Assembly: GCA_001766655.1 (NCBI GenBank)
Contig: MJCC01000003.1
Location: 1,468,109 to 1,532,108, forward strand
DNA length: 64,000 bases
Source: Phytomonas francai
Taxonomy: Eukaryota > Euglenozoa > Kinetoplastea > Trypanosomatida > Trypanosomatidae
Direction: 5' to 3'
How positions within the stretch are numbered: position 1 is the stretch's first letter; the number at the start of each line of letters is the position of its first letter. Positions 28,178-45,442 of this stretch are shown in pieces. The translations under genes and the position numbers were made by a program. The notes below the pieces were generated by a model. It ran no database searches, was not told the DNA's origin, and saw nothing but the letters and a program-made list of their open reading frames with translations.

Positions 28178-29998
28178 TTAACATTTAAATGAGTTCATGG
28201 CGGCGTAGGCGTGTGCTTTTTCTTCGTTGATTTTAGAGCGACTCCAATTCTTTACCTGTCCCATCAACTCGGACACACGAGGAATTGCCGCCTCTGCGGC
28301 CTTTACATTGACAAACGACATTCGGGTTCGCCTGGATATAAAATCCACGACGTGCTCGCAGTGCTCTCTTTCTGCCGACCACAACACCTCAGCCTCAACC
28401 ACAGGACATCCTTCAACCAGTCGCTTGAGGTAATTTTTATTGTCCTTGTACGCTAGAGCATACAGTTCGCCATAGGAATCACCGTAATTCCCTCTCCAGT
28501 GCTCGTGAACGTCCTTTGGAATATCCTTCGCCGGCACTACGGGAACGCTGTCGAAGTTACGAGAACCATACAACACCATGCTGCTAGTACTGCATGGCTT
28601 AAACGTCTTTACCCCCTTCATGACGGTATCACGTAAGGTATCCACAGTTTCCTCAGCTATCTTGCGGTATGTCGTCCATTTGCCGCCAGTCACAGTCACC
28701 ATGTGTTTATCCTGATTTACTGTGATAACGTGTTCCCTAACCATATTTTCAGTGCTCTCATCACCATGGCCGCGGCGGTTAAGCTTCGCCAGTGGCCGAA
28801 TGCCGGACCAGGCAGACATAACGGCTTCCCGTGGCATATCACCAAAAAATTTCCGTGCATTTTCCAAAAGAAATTCAACCTCCTTGCTTTTGGGTTTCGG
28901 GTCATGTGTGATAACTGTTTTCTCATCTGTGGTACCAATAAGGCAGCCCCCGAGCCATGGAATCGTGAAGATGACACGCCCATCAGATGACGGAAACACC
29001 ATAGCCTCATGGTTACGGGGGCAATACTGTTTCTCAATGACAATGTGCGTCCCTGACGAAGGAACGTTCTCAACGGAATTCTCAGCTCCGGAAAGCTTTT
29101 CCACCATACTGGCAAATGGGCCAGTAGCATTAACGATGGACTTGGAATATACAGTTAGCTCCTCGTTCTTCAAGCAGTCCTTGAGGGTCAAACGCAGAAG
29201 CTTCTCTCCAGACGCAAGGTCAACCTCTTCTGCTTTCTTTACTTCAGTATAATTTGCGGTTACAGCACCGTACGACGCTGCTGTCATGGCTACAGAAAAG
29301 CATAAGCGAGCGTCATTCATCTGGCCATCAAAATAGCGTACTGCTCCAAGAAGAGGCTTGTTGTGGCTATTTACCTTGCGCAAATTTGGGCAGAGAGAGA
29401 TAGTTTTGTACGCCGTCAAGTATCCTGAATAAGCGATTGTGCCGCCATAAAGGGCCGCAATGAAATCATACAGCTTCGCCCCTCCCCAGTACGTGACAAC
29501 CTCATAGGGGGTGTAGCACGGAAGGATGGTTGCGAGTCCGTGACAGAGGTGTGGCGCTTGGTGGATCATAATGCTGCGCTCACTAAGTGCCTCAGCTACC
29601 AGCTTCATCTGCATTAAATCACACTGGAAAACTGCCTTTTCAAGATATCGAATGCCACCATGAATAAGCTTTGTGCTCCGGCTGCTTGTTTCGCTGGCAT
29701 AGTCACCCATTTCCACAAGACCCACGGAAAGGCCGCGTGTAACTGCGTCCAGTGCTACGCCTGTTCCCACGGAGCCCCCACCAATCACCATCACGTCAAA
29801 GGAGTTTTCTGGCGAGTTATGCTCTTTTAGTTTTTGAATGCACTCGCTTCGAAGAGGAGGTGTATTGTACACAAAAGGCGGGTTTGCTTTCGAGTTGAAT
29901 TTGTGCCGAGTCCACGAGGGGTCCGTGTATGTGCCACCCATGGCCCCAGCAAACAAAACGGCACCGGCACCGACGATTAACTTGGCTGTAGAGACCAT
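28178..29998 (-). CDS. FAD-dependent glycerol-3-phosphate dehydrogenase, mitochondrial
   Basis: 606 residues from the ATG at 29998. The frame extends eight codons further only through a TTG, so 29998 is the start. It oxidises glycerol 3-phosphate to dihydroxyacetone phosphate and passes electrons to quinone on the outer face of the inner mitochondrial membrane. In trypanosomes it is half of the shuttle that reoxidises glycosomal NADH. The N-terminus has a hydrophobic segment (LIVGAGAVLFAGAMGG). The FAD Rossmann motif VMVIGGGSVGTG lies at about 69-80, followed by SSRSTKLIHGG, the GlpD signature. Further blocks are VNATGPFA, PWLGGCLIGTTDE and a TVTGGKWTTYRK FAD-binding block near 430-440. The C-terminal domain matches GlpD/GPD2, without the EF-hands of the animal enzyme. 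Confidence 0.95.
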   Translation of the reverse strand: MVSTAKLIVGAGAVLFAGAMGGTYTDPSWTRHKFNSKANPPFVYNTPPLRSECIQKLKEHNSPENSFDVMVIGGGSVGTGVALDAVTRGLSVGLVEMGDYASETSSRSTKLIHGGIRYLEKAVFQCDLMQMKLVAEALSERSIMIHQAPHLCHGLATILPCYTPYEVVTYWGGAKLYDFIAALYGGTIAYSGYLTAYKTISLCPNLRKVNSHNKPLLGAVRYFDGQMNDARLCFSVAMTAASYGAVTANYTEVKKAEEVDLASGEKLLRLTLKDCLKNEELTVYSKSIVNATGPFASMVEKLSGAENSVENVPSSGTHIVIEKQYCPRNHEAMVFPSSDGRVIFTIPWLGGCLIGTTDEKTVITHDPKPKSKEVEFLLENARKFFGDMPREAVMSAWSGIRPLAKLNRRGHGDESTENMVREHVITVNQDKHMVTVTGGKWTTYRKIAEETVDTLRDTVMKGVKTFKPCSTSSMVLYGSRNFDSVPVVPAKDIPKDVHEHWRGNYGDSYGELYALAYKDNKNYLKRLVEGCPVVEAEVLWSAEREHCEHVVDFISRRTRMSFVNVKAAEAAIPRVSELMGQVKNWSRSKINEEKAHAYAAMNSFKC

Positions 29999-31338
29999 TT
30001 CGGATTTATTATTTTTACACAATAATAGGCAATTACCAAGGAGTCTTTAATTAAAAGTTGTGCTTCTAAACAAAATGGCTACGGTAGACAAAAATTGTGA
30101 GTAAAGGAAAATAACATCAAATCAAAAAAGGAACATATATGTTTACTTGTATGATGATACGCGTTTGGGAGATCAAAGAAAAAAGAGTCAGAGCACTGTC
30201 AAAAGCTATAGACTGGTCTCATAGATTTATGTGTACCTAACAAGAGGTAATGCGTCAAGGCGAGAATCAATAAGATGGATGAGAATAACGAAAGTTAAAA
30301 CGAAAAGGGGAAAAACCTTCTACGTTCACTTTATATATATGTAGATAGATCGACTAATTGAGTTTTTCCACCCATTTAATGTTCACATACTATGAAAAGG
30401 AATATTATCCACTTCTCCTTCAATTCAAAGGAATCATTATTAGAATTTTTAAAATATAGAGTATGCTTTCGGCTCAGGGATAAATACCATGTAGAACCTC
30501 TAATCATTCGAAGACTCGCAGCTCCCTTAAGCGAAATCCATAGGGGTGAAATTCCGATGAACTCACGAGGCCAACGCATCTCTGCTCCAGAGGTCTTGCA
30601 TTACCAGAAAAAAAACATATCAAGGGCCAGAGAAAACAAAAATAGGTGTTGTAATTATTTGACATAGACAGCTTGCAGTGAAGTCGCAATGCTCCCCCCG
30701 ATTGCTCTTTAATTCATCATCCTAAAAGAAGCCATTTTGAATTGAAAGCTCGAAATCCCTTTTGAGTAGAACTCAACTTAGAATATCTATTAAGCTCTGA
30801 TTGTGGCTCTCGTTTGTTGAGACGTCGCACTATAATGTGGGAATCATCCAAATACTTCCGTATACAGACTGAACACTATCACCCTGACCGTTATTGTCTC
30901 CTTTTAACTACTATACAGCGAAAATGAAGCATACTCTTTAAGTAAACAGGTTGTTGATGTTCGCTTATACTCCTTTCCCAAGCAACTTATTTATAATCGG
31001 TATAGAACACCGAAATGTGAAAGGAATACTTCGATTTTATTGCAACACCCTAAGTAGCTTATTCTCTTTGATGATTTTCTTTCAAAGACTCGCCAGAGCG
31101 TGGCGTTATATTCTCTACCATAACCCCTTTCTAGAAGGAAAAAGATGTCGTGAGAATACTTTATGAATAAATGTGGCAACACAATTTTTTTTTTTAAAGG
31201 GCATAAAATTGTATCCAAGGGCTATCCATGGGGTTTTTAAGGTTTTCATCCACGCTGATTTTGTACAAGGCTAAAAAGAGCAAAATTAACACCAGTACCA
31301 CTGCTGTGCGTTTTGCCAGATGCATAGAAGGAAAACAA
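29999..31338. other. 1.3 kb spacer
   Basis: No gene supported. Several short open stretches of 60-90 codons lie on both strands (for example 30392-30667), but they are AT-rich, mutually overlapping and unlike any family I recognise. Confidence 0.5.
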
Positions 31339-32370
31339 TCATACAAGGCTAAGTGGTGCCCTGCCACTGATATCTAGCTTAGGGTGTTCCAACATCGACT
31401 GTGGCGGAAAAATAGTATGCATAAGGCTATCGATCAGTTTTAACCGGCGTCGAACAGTTACTGTTGAATTCCTCCTCTGCATTTCACGCCTAGTGGTAGA
31501 TGAACAGAGTAAAATTAAATACAGAAAAGCCATCCCTCCCACCGCCAGAGTGATTGAAATGTTGAAGACAAACAAAAAAACAGCACCAATATGCATTTCG
31601 TTTAAGACAGTTGGAATCGAGTCAGGATCTGAATTAGCACGTAAATGATCATTCCCATTAACATCGCGCTTTGCGGCTGAAGCTAAAAGGGGCGTGGTTT
31701 GGTTTCTCTTAGCCGGGAAAATGACATTGTTAAGAAAGAAATTCACTGTCCAAAATAATCCCATTAGTGAGGCGAATGCAACTGAAAACAAATACAGGAT
31801 AAACCAACGCAGGCTGCGTATACCGACACAACCACCAATAATTTTGCAGTGGTGGTCGTGCTCTAAAACGCAAACGCCACAAACATAGCAGTGCGATGTA
31901 CGTGGAGGCCGGCGTATGCCACACACACGGCAGTATACCAATGACAACTCCCTGCCAAGGGGATCTTCTTCGTTTGGATTTAGACGCGGGTACACACCGG
32001 GATCAGTACACGTTAAAAGAAAAGATGACGCAAAGGCAGTAAGTAGAAGCCCTACCACAACACTCAGTTCCAACGTACTTATTTCAGTCCATAGGATGTA
32101 AATATTAGACCCCGCAAGCACTAAGGTGATAGTCGTGGGGATACAAATTAGAAACCAATCTGGGCTAAAGTAGAAGTTGAAACCGCAAATTTTTTTCTTC
32201 TTTATTCGGCCCAGAGCCGCCTCAGACATGTTGCATCGCGTGCTGTACTCTGCATATTCTTCCAATTGGATAGGCAACTGAAGCGAACTGGAGGGCTGCG
32301 TGACCTCCTTACCAGGGATTGAGTAAGAATTAGAAGCTGTCGACTGTTTCATGATTAGTACAGGAAACAT
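31339..32370 (-). CDS. DHHC-type palmitoyltransferase
   Basis: 343 residues. It attaches fatty acids to cysteines of target proteins at membranes. Four hydrophobic segments lie around residues 70-92, 95-118, 190-212 and 262-288. Between the second and third is the cysteine-rich domain, with CRVCGIRRPPRTSHCYVCGVCV and the catalytic DHHC at 172-175. After DHHC the usual PWVGNCVG is replaced by KIIGGCVG, so the conserved Pro-Trp and Asn are missing. The motif essentials (Asp-His-His-Cys and the zinc Cys/His set) remain. A second in-frame Met occurs at residue 7. Trypanosomatids have about a dozen DHHC enzymes and I cannot say which this is. Confidence 0.92.
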   Translation of the reverse strand: MFPVLIMKQSTASNSYSIPGKEVTQPSSSLQLPIQLEEYAEYSTRCNMSEAALGRIKKKKICGFNFYFSPDWFLICIPTTITLVLAGSNIYILWTEISTLELSVVVGLLLTAFASSFLLTCTDPGVYPRLNPNEEDPLGRELSLVYCRVCGIRRPPRTSHCYVCGVCVLEHDHHCKIIGGCVGIRSLRWFILYLFSVAFASLMGLFWTVNFFLNNVIFPAKRNQTTPLLASAAKRDVNGNDHLRANSDPDSIPTVLNEMHIGAVFLFVFNISITLAVGGMAFLYLILLCSSTTRREMQRRNSTVTVRRRLKLIDSLMHTIFPPQSMLEHPKLDISGRAPLSLV

Positions 32371-37243: not shown

Positions 37244-38488
37244 CTAATAAACCCCTTTAATGAGGTTTGACTCATTTTCTTGTAATGTTTTAACGAAGCC
37301 CTCATTTGGTTGTGCCGCAGGTCGTGCTTGTCTGATAATCGATATGGCCTGTTCATATGAAATATGCATCTCCTTCATGATATATGCCGCTGCAACAGCA
37401 ACGGAGCGGGACAACCCTGCAAAGCAATGTACAAGAACACCAGATTTTGCTTTTCTAGCTTGGTCAATAAACTCAAAGGCCTCCTTGAAAATGAAGGCAA
37501 TGTTCTCCCCTGGAAAGTCGTCAAACATAATAACTCTGTGAATCATACCTAGCTCAATATTTACATTCATATTTCTTCCTATGGTTAAAACATATTTAAT
37601 GCCACAATATTGATAAACCGAAGCCGCTTGGGCCGTGCGCAATGATCCAATGTATAGAAAATCTATCACTTTGTCAGGGTAAATCTTGTTCAATGAAAGC
37701 GACAGCCATGGCAAGTTTTTTGACCAATCTTCTGCCACAATCTGCTCAACATACGGTGGCCTATTATCTATTCTAAGTAATGTTTGTTCAACCTTCACAC
37801 CGGTATTCCACATCTTCGCAAGTACACATTCAAGAAGAATTTCATAGGGAAGCGCCTTGATCATTTCTTCGTTCTGTCCAAGCAGGACTTCCCTCAAGAA
37901 TTGACAATGCTCAAAAAAAACAATCGGAAACTGGTTTAGGACGTTATTCTCCAGACCTATCTGCTCCAGGGAAGGCAAGATTTTCCGATCGGAATCGAGC
38001 TGTGGAAACGTTGATATCTTATTGCCGTTGAGCATCAATATCTTAAGTTTCGGCAAATAAAATAAAGACTCAGGAAGGCGCTCTAATTTATTTGAGTTGA
38101 CGAAAAGACTACTCAAATGATAGCAATTGGGATGAATAAACATTTCCCCTGGCAATTCAACCAAATTATTCTGGGAAAGATTAAGTTGAGTAAGCGACTC
38201 CAATAAAAGTCCAAGAGGTACTATAGTTAACTCAAAAGCGGAAAGGTCGCACTCACCATAAATTTGGCTTTGCAGGATTTCCTTCGAAATTTCGCTACCA
38301 ATATTGTGAGGTGAGGGCGGTTGGAGGGTCTGTTTTTTTTTCACAGGTTGTACTATCGGTTGTTCGGCTCCCGAACAGCTGGAGTGTCTACTACTAAAAG
38401 TGTCAAAAACTAAATCACTGTATGACAGCCCACTCGTCACAGAAATTGTGGCAGGTTCATCGTCAATGCTTTCCTCTAAACTCGACAT
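37244..38488 (-). CDS. Leucine-rich-repeat dual-specificity phosphatase
   Basis: 414 residues from the ATG at 38488. The frame extends upstream only through a TTG at 38599 and across the pyrimidine tract, so MSSLEESIDDE is taken as the start. After a Ser-rich N-terminus, about four or five leucine-rich repeats cover roughly residues 85-215 (LTQLNLSQNNLVELP, LSSLFVNSNKLERLP, LKILMLNGNKISTFP). A dual-specificity phosphatase domain lies at about 270-410 with the P-loop HCFAGLSRS, nucleophile Cys355 and Arg361. The general-acid Asp is probably in FDDFPGEN. LRR-DSP fusions form a known group in kinetoplastids. The substrate cannot be read from the sequence. Confidence 0.9.
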   Translation of the reverse strand: MSSLEESIDDEPATISVTSGLSYSDLVFDTFSSRHSSCSGAEQPIVQPVKKKQTLQPPSPHNIGSEISKEILQSQIYGECDLSAFELTIVPLGLLLESLTQLNLSQNNLVELPGEMFIHPNCYHLSSLFVNSNKLERLPESLFYLPKLKILMLNGNKISTFPQLDSDRKILPSLEQIGLENNVLNQFPIVFFEHCQFLREVLLGQNEEMIKALPYEILLECVLAKMWNTGVKVEQTLLRIDNRPPYVEQIVAEDWSKNLPWLSLSLNKIYPDKVIDFLYIGSLRTAQAASVYQYCGIKYVLTIGRNMNVNIELGMIHRVIMFDDFPGENIAFIFKEAFEFIDQARKAKSGVLVHCFAGLSRSVAVAAAYIMKEMHISYEQAISIIRQARPAAQPNEGFVKTLQENESNLIKGVY

Positions 38489-38771
38489 TGAGACCACTAA
38501 TATGGAAAAAAATAATCCTAAAAAAAAATAGTCATGACAAGCCAAAAACGTATCACGTAAAACATGTGAGGGAAAATGGCAATGAAATAAAGCAAACAAA
38601 AGTCATCAACAAAGTCAAATTATGTATATATAAAATACAAAACAAGGTTCAGATAGACAGAGCACTATAAAGTTTTTTAAAAACATCGATCTAGCATTAG
38701 AATACTTGACCTAATGCTTAAGATGATAGGCAAATAAAAACGTTTATGTATGTTCAATTACCGGAGAACGT

Positions 38772-39590: not shown

Positions 39591-42500
39591 TTATTCCGAA
39601 GATTTCTCGCATGCAACACACCCCAATACACCCAAATAACCATCGTGTTCAAGAAAATGCGCAATAGTTTCACCAGAAGACCAGTAACGCATTGTGGCAC
39701 TAATGATACTGCAAACAAGGTGATTGTTACGCACAAAACCGCCGGTAAAGAAAATGTTTTTCACGCCGTGTATTTTGGCATGAAGATAGGCTAGTTGTGT
39801 AACATTACCAGCGATCATATTCAGTAAGGAGCGCACAATGTCAAGTGAAGAGGCATCTGACAGTGCCCTATCTGAATTTTGTAGGTGAAACGGTGCATTT
39901 GTCGTTTTCGAGATTGGTGAAAGAAGCTCCCCAGTATTGTCGTCAGCAAAATGGTCCACAGGACTAGCACAGGCTGCTGCGTAAAAATGTTCTGCTCCAA
40001 ATTTTCCAAACGAACTTGCCACACTATCACAGGACAACATGGCAGGCAGTTCCTTCGCATTATAGCCATAAATGTCACCTACAAGTAAATCCACATTCTT
40101 ATTATCTCCTGGACCATCCAGACGCATAATTTCCAACACTTCCTCCCAGGATGTTAGATTAGTAAGAATTCGAGTAAGACCCCAAAAAGTAGCGCCACCA
40201 ATAGGTGAGCCACCAATCCTCACATGCGAACCATCTGAACCGAGGCACTTGATGAAGGAAATGCCGGAACCAATATTAATGAGCAGGTATGGGTACGGCG
40301 AGAACGAGTCGCCAGACCCTGTAAGTTGATGCGGCATATGTCTTCCGGAAGCCAAATCGACGGTAAAAATTGAATTGAGTGCCTGTTCAATAATTAAGTT
40401 TAAGCCTTTCACTATTGCATACATTTCTTTGACAGTGTCAAGCTCAACGTTAAGGGCTTGCCTCACTAGCGGGGCATATTTGTATGCCCCGCCACCCGTA
40501 GCACGCATATGATGTGTATACTCCTTTTTATAATAATTCATCAATTTATTCGCCGCGAAGAATTCTACAAACTCATGGGTTTTCTGTGACGGAACCTTCG
40601 CGAAACGAATCCTTCCGACATAAGAGCGCGGGCATTGCTCTGATTCACACCTTGCCTTGTCTTCATCCTCGAAGAAGCAAAAAAATCGCCCCCCTAGTGC
40701 ATCGGTGAGTGAGGACGCCTCATGTACGACGGAAGGCGGTAAATCAACTTCTTGCATGCCAGGCAGCACGACGTACGCAATTTTTGTAAACGTGCCTCCC
40801 ATATCAATTGCTATTGGTATCTTCAGCAGCAGTGCTTCGTTACTTGAGGGGGGACTTATGATATTAATTCGTTCGCTATCGGTTTCACCCAAGCTGCTAT
40901 TGGATAGAGCAGCCATATTCGTGATCGAGTGAAGGCTCCCTTCTCTGTAAAAGCGGGCTAGAACAGAATGAAAATATGTTTCCATGCAATCACGACGGTT
41001 TTTACCGAAAGCGTTAAGAAAGCCATTGTGGTCGCGAAAAGCATGCGGGTGAAGGTGAATAAACTCTATCCTCTGCGAGTGATGCAAGTGATGCTCCTCA
41101 GCTATTTTATTCAGATCCATTCGAATAATGTCAGACCCCAACTCAACCAGGTCTCTCCAAGTAAAAGGCCTGGGATGAGTTGTTTTCTGACTCTGTTGGC
41201 ATTCATACTCAATTGTATCACGGTTAGGATACACCACCGCCACCAGCGGTTTCATGGACTTACAGAAGAGAAAGATATCGTTTACGTAACGAGAGCAAGC
41301 AAATAGACGTTCAAGCTCCTCAGCTATCGCGTACTGGTAATCAACCGGCCAAAGAATTCCAGAAGAACTCCCAAGAAGCGTGAGAGTCCGGGACTTTTCC
41401 CAACATGCGGCGATCTTCAGGTGCCGCCGCTCCATGCATTGGTTAGTAATAGTGAGCTCACCAATTTGAGCTTTCTCAGACAATTGATTCATCGGTTCGA
41501 GTTTTAACCGAAGACCAGGTGCCGGTATACCATCGACCAGAAGGAGACCCACGGAGTTGATATAGCTCACTTCCCGTAAATTAGATGAATAGCACACCGA
41601 TATGTGTTCAATCAGGGGAAAGGAGGAGCTCTCCTCGGTGATATTCAATATAATGCGCCTAACATTTCCGCCAAGCTGACGCTCAAAGGTTCTAAAGAAA
41701 AGGAAGCGTAGGAGTGAAGAATCTCGTCTATTGAAATAAATAAGACGCGAGCGGAGCTGATATGCGCGCTCAAACATCCAGTTGTACAATGATATGCGAC
41801 TTTGACTCGCACGACTAAGCTGAAAACTGCTAGCATTGAACATTGAAGAAGAGGCGACGAGTATGGAAGGTTTGAATATTAAAAAAGCCTCCTGCAAGCG
41901 CGCGGAGTCAGTCATGGCGATGGCATTCCCTTGGGCAAGAAGACCTAGAATGCACAGACGGTTGAAAAGGGACGCGTAGGACGAAAACCATAGCATAGAA
42001 TGTTGCTGTTGATCCCCAGGAAGGACAGAAATTTGAAGCATATTTTTGATATCACGCAGAACTTGGCTCTGCGTCATGGGGAACACGACGTCGGCTTCCG
42101 AGTTGGTCGCGTTGTCCAAGGAGTAGCTGAAGATGGTGTTTGGGGTTGGTTTCGCGGAAGGCTGCTTCTGCTTTAGGCGTCCGCTAAGCTCAACACTTTC
42201 AAAAGGAATGAGGGAAACGTTCAAGTCCTTTGCAGCAACTAGGTCATCACTATCTACAAAGGGATGAAAGTGTATAATTTTCTCCAAAGACACAGAACGG
42301 GAGGTGAGAAGCGCAGCCACTGCGTCACGGCCTGCAAACACTACCTTGATGTGATTCTGGTCTAAGAGGGATCGAATCTGGCTCCGCTTCCCAGCTAAAC
42401 CGAGGGTATTAAATCCGTAAATAATGCAGGCGATGTCAAGGATTGATGCATTACAACAAGCTTCGCATTGCACACCAATGGTATCGCCAAACTTTAGGCC

Positions 42501-43934
42501 GAGGTTAAGAAGGCCCGCGCCAAGCTCCTGCGCGCGGGCGTCCGCTGCGCCATAAGAAATCCAGCTCACTTGGCCCATGTAGCCTGTGCTACCGAAGCAG
42601 CGTCGCCTGCGATAGCGAATGACGGAACGCTTCCACATATCATTAAGCGTGCTCACGTGGGGCAAAGGGTCGGGAACTCGAGGGGAAAGGCGAATCTCAG
42701 CTTCGCCTTGGATGACCTTATCGGTAACATGTGTAAAGTGGGTTTCGTCAGATAAACCGCTCAGGGTGTGGCGCGAGAAGCGTATAATGAGCCAGATGAG
42801 ACACGTAAGAATGAAGGGTTTAAAACTGACAGTAAGCGTCATCCATGCGAGACAAAAGAACACAAATAGATCGAGATGGTACGTAGACGTGGGATTCGAT
42901 TCTTCGTGATGCACTTGTTCGACAAGTGGAGAAATTTTTAGCAAAAATGTCGACTGCGGTCGCTTGTGTTGATCATGTCGGGCGGGGACTGAAATGACAG
43001 TGTAGATACCAAAGTGATCCGAGAGGTATGTATACGGGCGACGACTACTCACAATAAACTTTTCCAAACGAGAACCCGACGCCTCGATTGGATTAAGAAT
43101 GAAAAAGTAGTCCTCGCGCTGCGGGATAGATGGGCCCCCTTCGAGTTTCTGGCGTGTAGGAAAGAACAGCTTCGGTGGACGAGTTGGTGGGTTGAATCCG
43201 TTCTCTTCAAATATGATATCCTTAATATTGCCAAGAGCGTGTAGCTCATTTGTCAAATCATTAAAAGCACCTGATGGATAGTTAGTGTTCGATTTAATAC
43301 CATGTATATTAAAACTTCCAGAAACAATAAAAGGACATTTAACTTCTAATGAGCCCTCTATATTATTTTCCAGTTGCTTCAGGACAGAATCAATGAAGGA
43401 AACCATTTGCTGAACTTGAGAGGAATCGGACGGCGCCCGTTCCTCAGGACGTAAATGAACATTAAAGCACACAATTCGTCCACTGCCGTTACTATCGGGG
43501 ATTGGGATCTCAATTTCGGCAAAAATGCACCCCTTTAACATGAGATGCGATGCGTCTTCTTCCCTTCTGAACGTGTAAGAGCCTCGGTGGCATATAGGAA
43601 ACCTCGATGCAATGATAAGACCGTTGTCGGATATGACGTCATGGCGCAACATTGTACAATAGGATGGCTGCCTCGAAATGACGTAGTGATGAAACCCCCT
43701 CTCCTTCAACCCATCCAGCAACACTTTCTTAAAACAAAAACGTTTCTGGAAAGCATAGGGTAAAATGCTGGATGCATAAACTTCTTGAAGTAAGAGGATG
43801 TCGTATGAGTCTAATAGCTTGAGAAATGTTTCAATACGCTCATACTGATAGCCACCGCATCCCCGCGGAAGGATGTTAAAGTTGTAGCTCAAAACGCGAG
43901 CCTTTGCCACATTTTTTTCGCCAATAGGTTTCAT
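39591..43934 (-). CDS. Trimodular fusion: EEP/sphingomyelinase-like + acyl-CoA-synthetase-like + pantothenate kinase
   Basis: 1447 residues from the ATG at 43934; the frame before it opens with TTG. (1) Residues ~10-320: endonuclease/exonuclease/phosphatase fold like neutral sphingomyelinase, with Glu51 in LLLQEV, FNVHL, and SDHFG with Asp306/His307. The GDxN motif reads SGSFN, with Ser207 where Asp is expected. (2) About 355-395: two membrane segments. (3) About 450-960: long-chain acyl-CoA synthetase-like domain (ARAQELGAGLLNLGLKFGD, PGLRLKLEP, GELTI, and a tail starting WPVDYQYAIAEELE), but no TSGTTG-K phosphate loop. (4) About 1040-1447: eukaryotic-type pantothenate kinase with IAIDMGGTFTK (Asp1044), RATGGGAYKYAPL, INIGSGISF, IGGSPIGGATFWGL and FFTGGFVRNN, apparently intact. 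Pantothenate kinase commits pantothenate to CoA synthesis. Trypanosomatids are known to carry a large pantothenate kinase; whether the front modules are described I cannot say. Confidence 0.85.
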   Translation of the reverse strand: MKPIGEKNVAKARVLSYNFNILPRGCGGYQYERIETFLKLLDSYDILLLQEVYASSILPYAFQKRFCFKKVLLDGLKERGFHHYVISRQPSYCTMLRHDVISDNGLIIASRFPICHRGSYTFRREEDASHLMLKGCIFAEIEIPIPDSNGSGRIVCFNVHLRPEERAPSDSSQVQQMVSFIDSVLKQLENNIEGSLEVKCPFIVSGSFNIHGIKSNTNYPSGAFNDLTNELHALGNIKDIIFEENGFNPPTRPPKLFFPTRQKLEGGPSIPQREDYFFILNPIEASGSRLEKFIVSSRRPYTYLSDHFGIYTVISVPARHDQHKRPQSTFLLKISPLVEQVHHEESNPTSTYHLDLFVFFCLAWMTLTVSFKPFILTCLIWLIIRFSRHTLSGLSDETHFTHVTDKVIQGEAEIRLSPRVPDPLPHVSTLNDMWKRSVIRYRRRRCFGSTGYMGQVSWISYGAADARAQELGAGLLNLGLKFGDTIGVQCEACCNASILDIACIIYGFNTLGLAGKRSQIRSLLDQNHIKVVFAGRDAVAALLTSRSVSLEKIIHFHPFVDSDDLVAAKDLNVSLIPFESVELSGRLKQKQPSAKPTPNTIFSYSLDNATNSEADVVFPMTQSQVLRDIKNMLQISVLPGDQQQHSMLWFSSYASLFNRLCILGLLAQGNAIAMTDSARLQEAFLIFKPSILVASSSMFNASSFQLSRASQSRISLYNWMFERAYQLRSRLIYFNRRDSSLLRFLFFRTFERQLGGNVRRIILNITEESSSFPLIEHISVCYSSNLREVSYINSVGLLLVDGIPAPGLRLKLEPMNQLSEKAQIGELTITNQCMERRHLKIAACWEKSRTLTLLGSSSGILWPVDYQYAIAEELERLFACSRYVNDIFLFCKSMKPLVAVVYPNRDTIEYECQQSQKTTHPRPFTWRDLVELGSDIIRMDLNKIAEEHHLHHSQRIEFIHLHPHAFRDHNGFLNAFGKNRRDCMETYFHSVLARFYREGSLHSITNMAALSNSSLGETDSERINIISPPSSNEALLLKIPIAIDMGGTFTKIAYVVLPGMQEVDLPPSVVHEASSLTDALGGRFFCFFEDEDKARCESEQCPRSYVGRIRFAKVPSQKTHEFVEFFAANKLMNYYKKEYTHHMRATGGGAYKYAPLVRQALNVELDTVKEMYAIVKGLNLIIEQALNSIFTVDLASGRHMPHQLTGSGDSFSPYPYLLINIGSGISFIKCLGSDGSHVRIGGSPIGGATFWGLTRILTNLTSWEEVLEIMRLDGPGDNKNVDLLVGDIYGYNAKELPAMLSCDSVASSFGKFGAEHFYAAACASPVDHFADDNTGELLSPISKTTNAPFHLQNSDRALSDASSLDIVRSLLNMIAGNVTQLAYLHAKIHGVKNIFFTGGFVRNNHLVCSIISATMRYWSSGETIAHFLEHDGYLGVLGCVACEKSSE

Positions 43935-45073
43935 ATCCTTTGCATACAATTCTTGATGTAACAGTAAAAAAAAGAAAGATTAAGTAAAAATTCAAAAATG
44001 AGACGTCACAAAACAAAAATCTTCTTTTGACCATAAATTATATTAAGTTGACGTATAAACACTAATTTTTTATGAACCACCATATACAATTGTACCTGAG
44101 AAAATCGAGCTGCATTTGCCGTGGGAAATAGGCTTAGAATTACAAGGATCGAGTAAACAGGAGAAAGGTAGAAACAGAAGGAAGGAAGGTCAATTTTTAG
44201 GTTTACCCGAATCGACATGGAAAATCACATACCAAAAGGATATATATATATATATATATACACTAAGTCCTCTTTTGCCGCCTATGAACAAGATACTACA
44301 CAATGAGTTCTACAGGATCCCTCGGGAATGAGGTTACGTAGAGAATACCCCCACAACTACACAGTTTATCGTTTCAAAGCAACCCCATTATCATGTGAAT
44401 ACTACGCAAGATGGGGAAAACCCTATAAAATGGGCAGGGAAAAGCAATGCTTGTTGTAATTAGAAGGAACCCTCAAATAAAATTTACAGGAGAGTCACGG
44501 TGTTTCAAAATTATGAAAAAATGATGGAACCATCCATGTCAGGTATTCCAAGTCCTCAAAACCAAGAAAATAAACTACGTATACGAGGGGTATTAGAGAA
44601 TAAAGAGGTGCAAGTGGCGAGGAAAAAAGTGCCTATGAACAAAATGTAAAAAAGCGGCAGCCCATACTAAAGTGCCTTGCAAGTGTATACTCACACCTCA
44701 ATGCGTCTTTTCCTAAAGCATTGTGCAGCATTTTTTTAATTATGCGAAGTATTAGCGTAGGTGGCACCGGCAAACATAACCAGCCCGAATGTATGCATCA
44801 CAGCAGGCAGCTATCATCACAACCTTGTATTCATAATTCACATTAACATTATGTGGAGGAGGAGAAAGAATTTTACTAAATATTAGGAAAGCATTGATGT
44901 TTCTTCTGTCTCATCTTCCTTTTTTCGAATCGTTGTGCCGCTTTAGTTCGATCACTCGTCCATTCTTAATTTCTATCCATCTACCCAAAATATTTAAGAG
45001 AGTGTCCTGTTCAGTCCTGAATAGAAATATGTATAGAATTCATATGCCAATCAATGATGCTATAGGTTTGACT
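43935..45073. other. 1.1 kb spacer
   Basis: No gene supported. A TA repeat lies at 44240-44260. A-runs near 43964-43975 read as T-rich tracts on the minus strand upstream of the fusion gene. Confidence 0.5.
44240..44260. repeat. (TA)n microsatellite
   Basis: About ten TA units. Confidence 0.85.
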
Positions 45074-45442
45074 CTAGACATCTTCGCTTTTCCATACAAA
45101 GCGGCATCTCGGATTTGCACATGCAAAGTATAGTGTCATGTCTTCTTGCGGCTGTCCTAAAGGGTTGACAAAGCATGTAACATCGTTGTGTTCGCATTTG
45201 GGACATTTCTTGGTCGGATCTCGTTGCGCAGTCGGGTCACTCGCAAATTCTTCTAAAAAATCCGTTTCGCCCACAGTATCACTCTTTATTTTTAGATTTA
45301 AAACATGGACCATCTTATATTCGTCGTGTATTTCGGTCATTTGGCAATAGTTACATCGCCAAAGCATGTTACGTTGAGGGTCACATTCAGGATACAACAA
45401 ATTGTTGCAGCGAGCGCAGAAGAGCATAGGCGCAGCGTTCAT
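45074..45442 (-). CDS. RNA polymerase II subunit RPB9
   Basis: 122 residues, the usual RPB9 size. Two zinc ribbons are complete: Cys9/Cys12 with Cys30/Cys33, and Cys80/Cys83 with Cys108/Cys113. The linker contains the RPB9-type SDPTAQRDPTKKCPKC, and the end (YFACANPRCRFVW) is the TFIIS-like C-ribbon signature. The homologous subunits of Pol I and Pol III share this plan; the SDPT motif before the second ribbon favours Pol II. RPB9 affects fidelity and start selection. The start is the first ATG, only nine residues before the first ligand. Confidence 0.9.
   Translation of the reverse strand: MNAAPMLFCARCNNLLYPECDPQRNMLWRCNYCQMTEIHDEYKMVHVLNLKIKSDTVGETDFLEEFASDPTAQRDPTKKCPKCEHNDVTCFVNPLGQPQEDMTLYFACANPRCRFVWKSEDV

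What the first reader, a model, noticed from the sequence alone, without database searches (positions are those of the whole stretch)
39591..43934. Three-module protein: sphingomyelinase-like + acyl-CoA-synthetase-like + pantothenate kinase, with the first two modules altered at catalytic motifs
Seen: one uninterrupted 1447-codon frame joins an EEP/sphingomyelinase-like fold, two membrane helices, a long-chain acyl-CoA-synthetase-like domain and a full pantothenate kinase. The EEP module keeps Glu51 and Asp306/His307 but has Ser207 in place of the GDxN aspartate. The synthetase-like module lacks the TSGTTG phosphate loop. The kinase module keeps its nucleotide and TGGGAYK motifs. Known: pantothenate kinase is the first step to CoA, acyl-CoA synthetases consume CoA, and eukaryotic pantothenate kinases are regulated by acyl-CoA. 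Inference: the dead synthetase module may act as an acyl-CoA or lipid sensor that controls the kinase at a membrane. This could be a lipid-responsive CoA synthesis switch.
Basis: partly seen in the sequence, partly recalled or inferred. Interest (0 to 1): 0.82.

Follow-up and report, generated by a model that had tools for sequence, protein, structure and literature searches.

The report
Kinetoplastid three-module membrane pantothenate kinase
In this relative of trypanosomes the enzyme that starts coenzyme A synthesis is fused to a sphingomyelinase-like domain, a probable membrane hairpin and a dead fatty-acid-activating domain, an arrangement shared by other kinetoplastids whose purpose is unknown to us.

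Summary
The frame is real: 1447 codons on the minus strand. It joins a neutral-sphingomyelinase-like EEP domain, a hydrophobic hairpin, a complete but dead adenylate-forming (ANL, acyl-CoA-synthetase/CAR-like) fold, and an intact type II pantothenate kinase (PanK), the only Fumble match in this genome. It is not an oddity of this organism: 37 of 40 relatives found, from Phytomonas to Bodo, cover every module (three models start late), and databases already name several "pantothenate kinase subunit". The two "altered" modules differ. The ANL phosphate loop is absent in all 45 chains that reach it. The EEP keeps nine active-site residues in 26 of 38 chains; its GDxN aspartate was lost in three separate clades (Ser in 3 of 3 Phytomonas, Asn in the Bodo group, Thr/Cys/Ser in an unnamed clade). 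In Phytomonas the EEP shows no sign of loosened constraint. The kinase keeps the residues matching human PANK3 E138, R207 and W341 in 38 of 38 chains, so acyl-CoA may act on it directly. Best reading: a membrane-tethered PanK whose pseudo-ANL and, here, pseudo-EEP have non-catalytic regulatory or structural roles. The acyl-CoA-sensor idea is untested but not excluded. The architecture is annotated; seven paper searches found no description of it.

The parts
39591..43934 (-). whole gene: EEP - hydrophobic hairpin - pseudo-ANL - linker - PanK, 1447 aa
   Evidence: full-length relatives
42981..43910 (-). EEP module, aa 9-318, neutral-sphingomyelinase-like fold
43314..43316 (-). Ser207 codon at the GDxN aspartate position
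   Evidence: Ser in 3 of 3 Phytomonas chains, Asp in 29 of 38 chains
42765..42881 (-). hydrophobic hairpin, aa 352-390
   Evidence: 19-residue hydropathy peak 1.91 here, 1.67 or more in the 38 full-length chains; helices 352-368 and 371-390 in the model
40920..42704 (-). pseudo-ANL (acyl-CoA-synthetase/CAR-like) module, aa 411-1005
42048..42140 (-). degenerate A3 phosphate-loop stretch, aa 599-629
40815..40919 (-). fast-changing linker, aa 1006-1040
   Evidence: 66 and 51% identical within Phytomonas; model pLDDT under 50 at aa 999-1033
39594..40817 (-). type II pantothenate kinase module, aa 1040-1447
   Evidence: Fumble E 4e-93; yeast CAB1 and human PANK1-3 by sequence; PANK1-3 and CAB1 among Foldseek matches
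43938..43979 (-). polypyrimidine tract (43966-43979) and AG dinucleotides (43952-43953, 43938-43939), a possible spliced-leader acceptor
   Evidence: read by eye; no transcript data

Best explanation
A kinetoplastid, membrane-tethered type II pantothenate kinase. The C-terminal kinase phosphorylates pantothenate (inferred from complete motifs) and is probably feedback-inhibited by acyl-CoA at its own active site, as human PANKs are. The EEP unit plus hydrophobic hairpin tethers the chain to a membrane, with both ends in the cytosol. The middle ANL fold was an acyl/aryl-adenylating enzyme that lost ATP handling early in the group; it is kept as a non-catalytic regulatory or scaffold domain. The EEP is probably still a metal-dependent phosphohydrolase in most relatives, but in Phytomonas it has become a second pseudoenzyme kept for structure, tethering or ligand binding. 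Shown here: architecture, predicted folds, motif states, conservation, separate losses. Inferred: membrane attachment, topology, feedback, and every regulatory role.
For: 40 relatives, 27-83% identical, 37 covering all modules, including Bodo saltans; EukProt entry P0044 has all three Pfam domains. Kinase residues D1044, E1170, S1223, R1239, W1418 unchanged in 38 of 38 and in 8 of 8 further chains, with E1170, R1239, A1306, W1418 matching PANK3 E138, R207, A269, W341. One Fumble match in the genome, with CoaE and DFP matches present. ANL fold complete but A3 pattern in 0 of 46 chains and A7 Asp in 0 of 40 at the aligned column, while 30 positions are invariant in 37 chains. EEP: sphingomyelinases lead among EEP chains by profile and by structure; nine active-site residues kept in 26 of 38. 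Asp lost in three separate clades. Phytomonas EEP is 86-87% identical against 82-83% for the kinase, and its share of the EEP tree is 0.039 against 0.064 of the kinase tree.
Against: No experiment on any member was found. The hairpin helices are short and of middling confidence. Relative placing of ANL and kinase is uncertain (pTM 0.60). ANL motif columns rest on alignments at about 12% identity. Lys978 at the A10 position is kept in 22 of 43 chains, so residual binding or chemistry in the ANL is not excluded. The low Phytomonas EEP share could also mean that its kinase sped up: stem lengths are 0.396 (EEP) and 0.417 (kinase), whereas in the Herpetomonas and Leishmania groups the EEP stem is longer than the kinase stem. 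P0035 (Angomonas) begins at ANL residue 433, so the EEP may be dispensable there or the model is short. P0043 and P0046 keep the GDxN Asp but have lost other EEP site residues.
Confidence: 0.6

Rival explanations
1. One reading: the dead ANL binds acyl-CoA or fatty acid and directly turns the kinase on or off at a membrane.
For: Complete ANL fold with 30 positions invariant in 37 chains; solved matches include fatty acyl-CoA synthetases; human PANKs are inhibited by acyl-CoAs (PMC6199309, passages).
Against: No ligand evidence; best ANL match by Foldseek and by profile is the carboxylic acid reductase adenylation domain (top ANL family in 3 of 4 chains), which I recall does not use CoA; the kinase keeps pocket residues of PANKs, so a second sensor is not needed.
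Confidence: 0.25
2. Bifunctional enzyme: in most kinetoplastids the EEP hydrolyses a lipid headgroup or a CoA-route phosphate (compare PanK-DUF89 fusions), opposing or informing the kinase; Phytomonas and the Bodo group lost that half.
Against: The Asp of the nSMase P-loop/DK-type motif is kept in 4 of 38 chains at the aligned column, Glu in 19; substrate unknown; loss in three clades, plus other site changes in P0025, P0026, P0028, P0043 and P0046, shows the activity is dispensable.
Confidence: 0.35
3. Pure scaffold: EEP and ANL only tether and dimerise the kinase at a membrane, with no ligand.
For: Both modules lack catalytic motifs here and stay conserved.
Against: Nine EEP site residues kept in 26 of 38 chains suggest EEP catalysis is selected in most lineages; invariant positions in the ANL.
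Confidence: 0.3
4. Assembly or gene-model artefact joining separate genes.
For: Only that three relatives have shorter models.
Against: Same chain in many separately sequenced species; no stop in 1447 codons.
Confidence: 0.01

Closest known systems
Kinetoplastid 'pantothenate kinase subunit' / 'Endonuclease/Exonuclease/phosphatase family/AMP-binding enzyme/Fumble' (database names, e.g. Leishmania donovani P0010, L. naiffi P0011)
   Same: Same modules, order and similar length; this gene groups with them as an orthologue
   Different: Phytomonas has Ser for the GDxN Asp
Type II pantothenate kinases, yeast CAB1 and human PANK1-3
   Same: Kinase module, with E138, R207, A269, W341 of PANK3 matched
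   Different: The solved chains hold no EEP or ANL (lengths 360-386); PANK3 A337 and R306 positions are Thr and Tyr here (counted by hand)
PanK-DUF89 fusions (PANK4 type, name recalled)
   Same: PanK fused to another domain (P0047, P0048)
   Different: Partner is DUF89 (PF01937), not EEP plus ANL
Neutral sphingomyelinases (nSMase1, Isc1, trypanosomatid ISCL/TbnSMase)
   Same: EEP fold followed by hydrophobic helices; best structural match
   Different: Fused; DK/P-loop Asp not kept; catalytic Asp lost here. The genome has a separate 640-aa gene that looks like ISCL by length and motifs (L004, my reading)
ANL superfamily: fatty acyl-CoA synthetases and CAR adenylation domains
   Same: Whole fold including C-terminal subdomain
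   Different: No phosphate loop and no A7 Asp

Membership tests
Type II (eukaryotic-type) pantothenate kinase | Fumble/PanK domain above cut-off | tested here: met
   Pfam 312.6 bits against cut-off 28.5. Against: NCBIfam TIGR00555 229 bits, under its 247.6 cut-off, as in the 4 relatives scanned
Type II (eukaryotic-type) pantothenate kinase | Residues matching PANK3 E138 and R207 | tested here: met
   E1170, R1239, 38 of 38
Type II (eukaryotic-type) pantothenate kinase | Phosphorylates pantothenate | not testable with these tools
   needs an assay
EEP superfamily | EEP fold | tested here: met
EEP superfamily | Complete catalytic set with GDxN Asp, Glu, Asp-His | tested here: not met
   Glu51 and Asp306-His307 present, GDxN Asp is Ser in this protein; so a fold member but not shown to be an active enzyme
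Neutral sphingomyelinase | P-loop/DK-type motif (His115 to Lys122 in ISCL) | tested here: not met
   Ser at the aligned Asp position, Lys134 kept; motif from PMC2784226 passages
Neutral sphingomyelinase | Two C-terminal transmembrane helices | tested here: inconclusive
   one long hydrophobic stretch, modelled as a hairpin
ANL acyl-CoA synthetase | ANL fold | tested here: met
ANL acyl-CoA synthetase | A3 phosphate loop | tested here: not met
   0 of 46 chains against 7 of 7 controls
ANL acyl-CoA synthetase | A7 Asp | tested here: not met
   0 of 40 at the aligned column
Kinetoplastid three-module PanK | EEP, hairpin, pseudo-ANL and PanK in one chain | tested here: met

The most novel reading that the evidence does not exclude
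A single-chain control device for CoA synthesis at a membrane, present since early kinetoplastid evolution. A dead adenylating domain senses acyl groups and gates the pantothenate kinase, while an EEP hydrolase half, intact in most species and separately silenced in Phytomonas and the Bodo group, couples lipid headgroup or phosphopantetheine turnover to CoA supply.
Probability: 0.18. Interest if true: 0.82.

Novelty: new variant of a known kind. Interest (0 to 1): 0.52.

Why it matters
PanK is the rate-controlling step of CoA synthesis in mammals (PMC6199309, passages). Here the one PanK found carries about 1000 extra residues that stay 26-39% identical even in Bodo and P0041, built from a lipid-enzyme fold and a dead fatty-acid-activating fold. 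That makes lipid control of CoA directly testable in laboratory trypanosomatids. The three separate losses of the EEP aspartate are a natural experiment on whether that activity matters. ANL pseudoenzymes with a clear physiological partner are unusual (general knowledge, not searched).

Tried and rejected
Rejected: assembly artefact; relaxed decay of the Phytomonas EEP. In the Bodo clade, by contrast, the EEP share is raised (0.144 against 0.061 for the kinase), and slightly in P0031/33/34 (0.072 against 0.064), which fits some decay there. A recent copy of this genome's ISCL-like gene as source of the EEP: that gene (L004) is the best match among the EEP loci fetched, but at only 24% over 241 aa, E 0.003; an old common origin is not excluded.

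Led nowhere: profile search with A1 gave 25 hits, all seen before. Seven paper searches found nothing on this fusion (open-licence PMC library only; few of the listed papers were opened). PMC3833962, PMC2927427 and PMC11018031 were looked at by passage only and say nothing on the architecture there. A strict A3 pattern matched only 4 of 7 true synthetases, so a relaxed one was used. In the same call TGD occurs somewhere in the ANL region of 3 of 46 chains and a loose A8 pattern in 16 of 46, this protein included. The VIA listing for the ANL+kinase model showed only ANL rows, so the kinase rests.

Rows dropped: P0020, P0035, P0040 (N-terminally short) from the 38-chain counts; P0028 also from the 37-chain invariant count; P0042, P0045, P0046 also from the 40-chain ANL alignment. 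One search dropped the same three and used a topology copied.
Full report
Observation. The frame lies on the minus strand, 43934 down to 39591, 1447 codons with no stop inside. A polypyrimidine tract and AG lie just upstream of the ATG, as expected for a trans-spliced gene (inference). Pfam finds Fumble (E 4e-93), AMP-binding (E 2e-10) and a sub-threshold Exo_endo_phos (E 0.001).

Whose gene. The best relatives are Phytomonas sp. EM1 and Hart1, 83% identical over the whole chain. The tree puts the window with them (SH-aLRT 100), so the genome is Phytomonas or close kin (inferred from this one protein). The genome, 17.4 Mb, has a single Fumble match, 12 EEP matches and 12 AMP-binding matches (lower bounds, and some AMP-binding matches are pieces of one frame). 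One of the AMP-binding and none of the EEP matches is this gene. CoaE (2) and DFP (1, partial) matches are present.

Relatives. One search gave 40 relatives; P0020, P0035 and P0040 start late, the other 37 cover all modules. Several are named 'pantothenate kinase subunit' or by all three domains in databases. Searching from the most distant one, P0041, added P0044 (EukProt PhM_4; I recall PhM-4 as an early-branching kinetoplastid isolate, not checked) with all three Pfam domains over cut-off, P0043, a fragment P0042, two very long unnamed chains P0045 and P0046, and two PanK-DUF89 chains. P0045 has an EEP by Pfam; P0046 aligns at EEP motifs only.

Is the Phytomonas EEP decaying? Window against EM1 and Hart1: EEP 86 and 87% identical, ANL 83 and 83%, kinase 83 and 82%, linker 66 and 51%. 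On a fixed tree the Phytomonas clade takes 3.9% of the EEP tree, 5.6% of the ANL tree and 6.4% of the kinase tree. There is no sign of relaxed constraint, so the Asp-less EEP is probably still useful; a faster kinase in this lineage would give part of the same pattern. In the Bodo clade the share is higher for EEP (14.4%) than kinase (6.1%), pointing the other way there.

Membrane stretch. The 38 full-length chains all have a hydrophobic stretch after the EEP (peak 1.67 or more); the model breaks it into two helices. No residue in aa 331-410 is invariant in 37 chains. A hairpin with both ends cytosolic is the natural reading, since the kinase needs cytosolic ATP and pantothenate (inference).

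Kinase module. Human PANK3 E138, R207, A269 and W341 align to E1170, R1239, A1306 and W1418 (counted by hand from the construct numbering, offset 6), kept in 38, 38, 36 and 38 of 38 and in all 8 further chains. PMC6199309 (passages) reports E138A as inactive, acetyl-CoA as feedback inhibitor, and R207, A269', R306' and W341' as contacts of an activator that makes the enzyme refractory to acetyl-CoA. R306 aligns to Tyr here as in yeast, and A337 to Thr (Thr in 25 of 38). So direct acyl-CoA control is plausible but not certain.

Interpretation. The strongest claim is structural: the kinetoplastids sampled run CoA synthesis from a PanK built into a probably membrane-tethered chain with one pseudoenzyme shared by all (ANL) and one module (EEP) that has been silenced more than once. 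A bifunctional enzyme in Asp-bearing species is at least as likely. These readings overlap, so their odds need not sum to one. Literature: no paper on this fusion was found in seven searches of an open-licence library; subscription papers are not covered.

Noticed in passing
L021/L022 (G000:C4:484309-486270, minus): A second divergent AMP-binding protein (open frame 1312 aa) near several acyl-CoA synthetase genes, with an altered phosphate loop; possibly another pseudo-synthetase.
   Followed up: partly
L023/L025 (G000:C35:701491-702690, plus): A 530-aa frame matching the AMP-binding profile in two pieces with the middle unmatched.
   Followed up: no
window 37244-38599, minus: Downstream neighbour: leucine-rich repeats plus dual-specificity phosphatase domain in one chain.
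   Followed up: no
window 45074-45442, minus: Upstream neighbour, 122 aa with several CxxC pairs, looks like RNA polymerase subunit RPB9 to my eye; Pfam gave no match at E 0.001.
   Followed up: partly
P0045 (2344 aa) and P0046 (3019 aa): Very long unnamed PanK chains with EEP-like N-termini; P0046 has Ser for the Asp of SDH. Their hosts are unknown.
   Followed up: partly
P0035 (Angomonas deanei, 1004 aa): Gene model starts at the ANL module, so either the EEP is lost there or the model is short.
   Followed up: no
window 28178-30022 and 31339-32370, minus: FAD-dependent glycerophosphate-oxidase-like protein and a DHHC palmitoyltransferase, about 7-11 kb away on the same strand.
   Followed up: no
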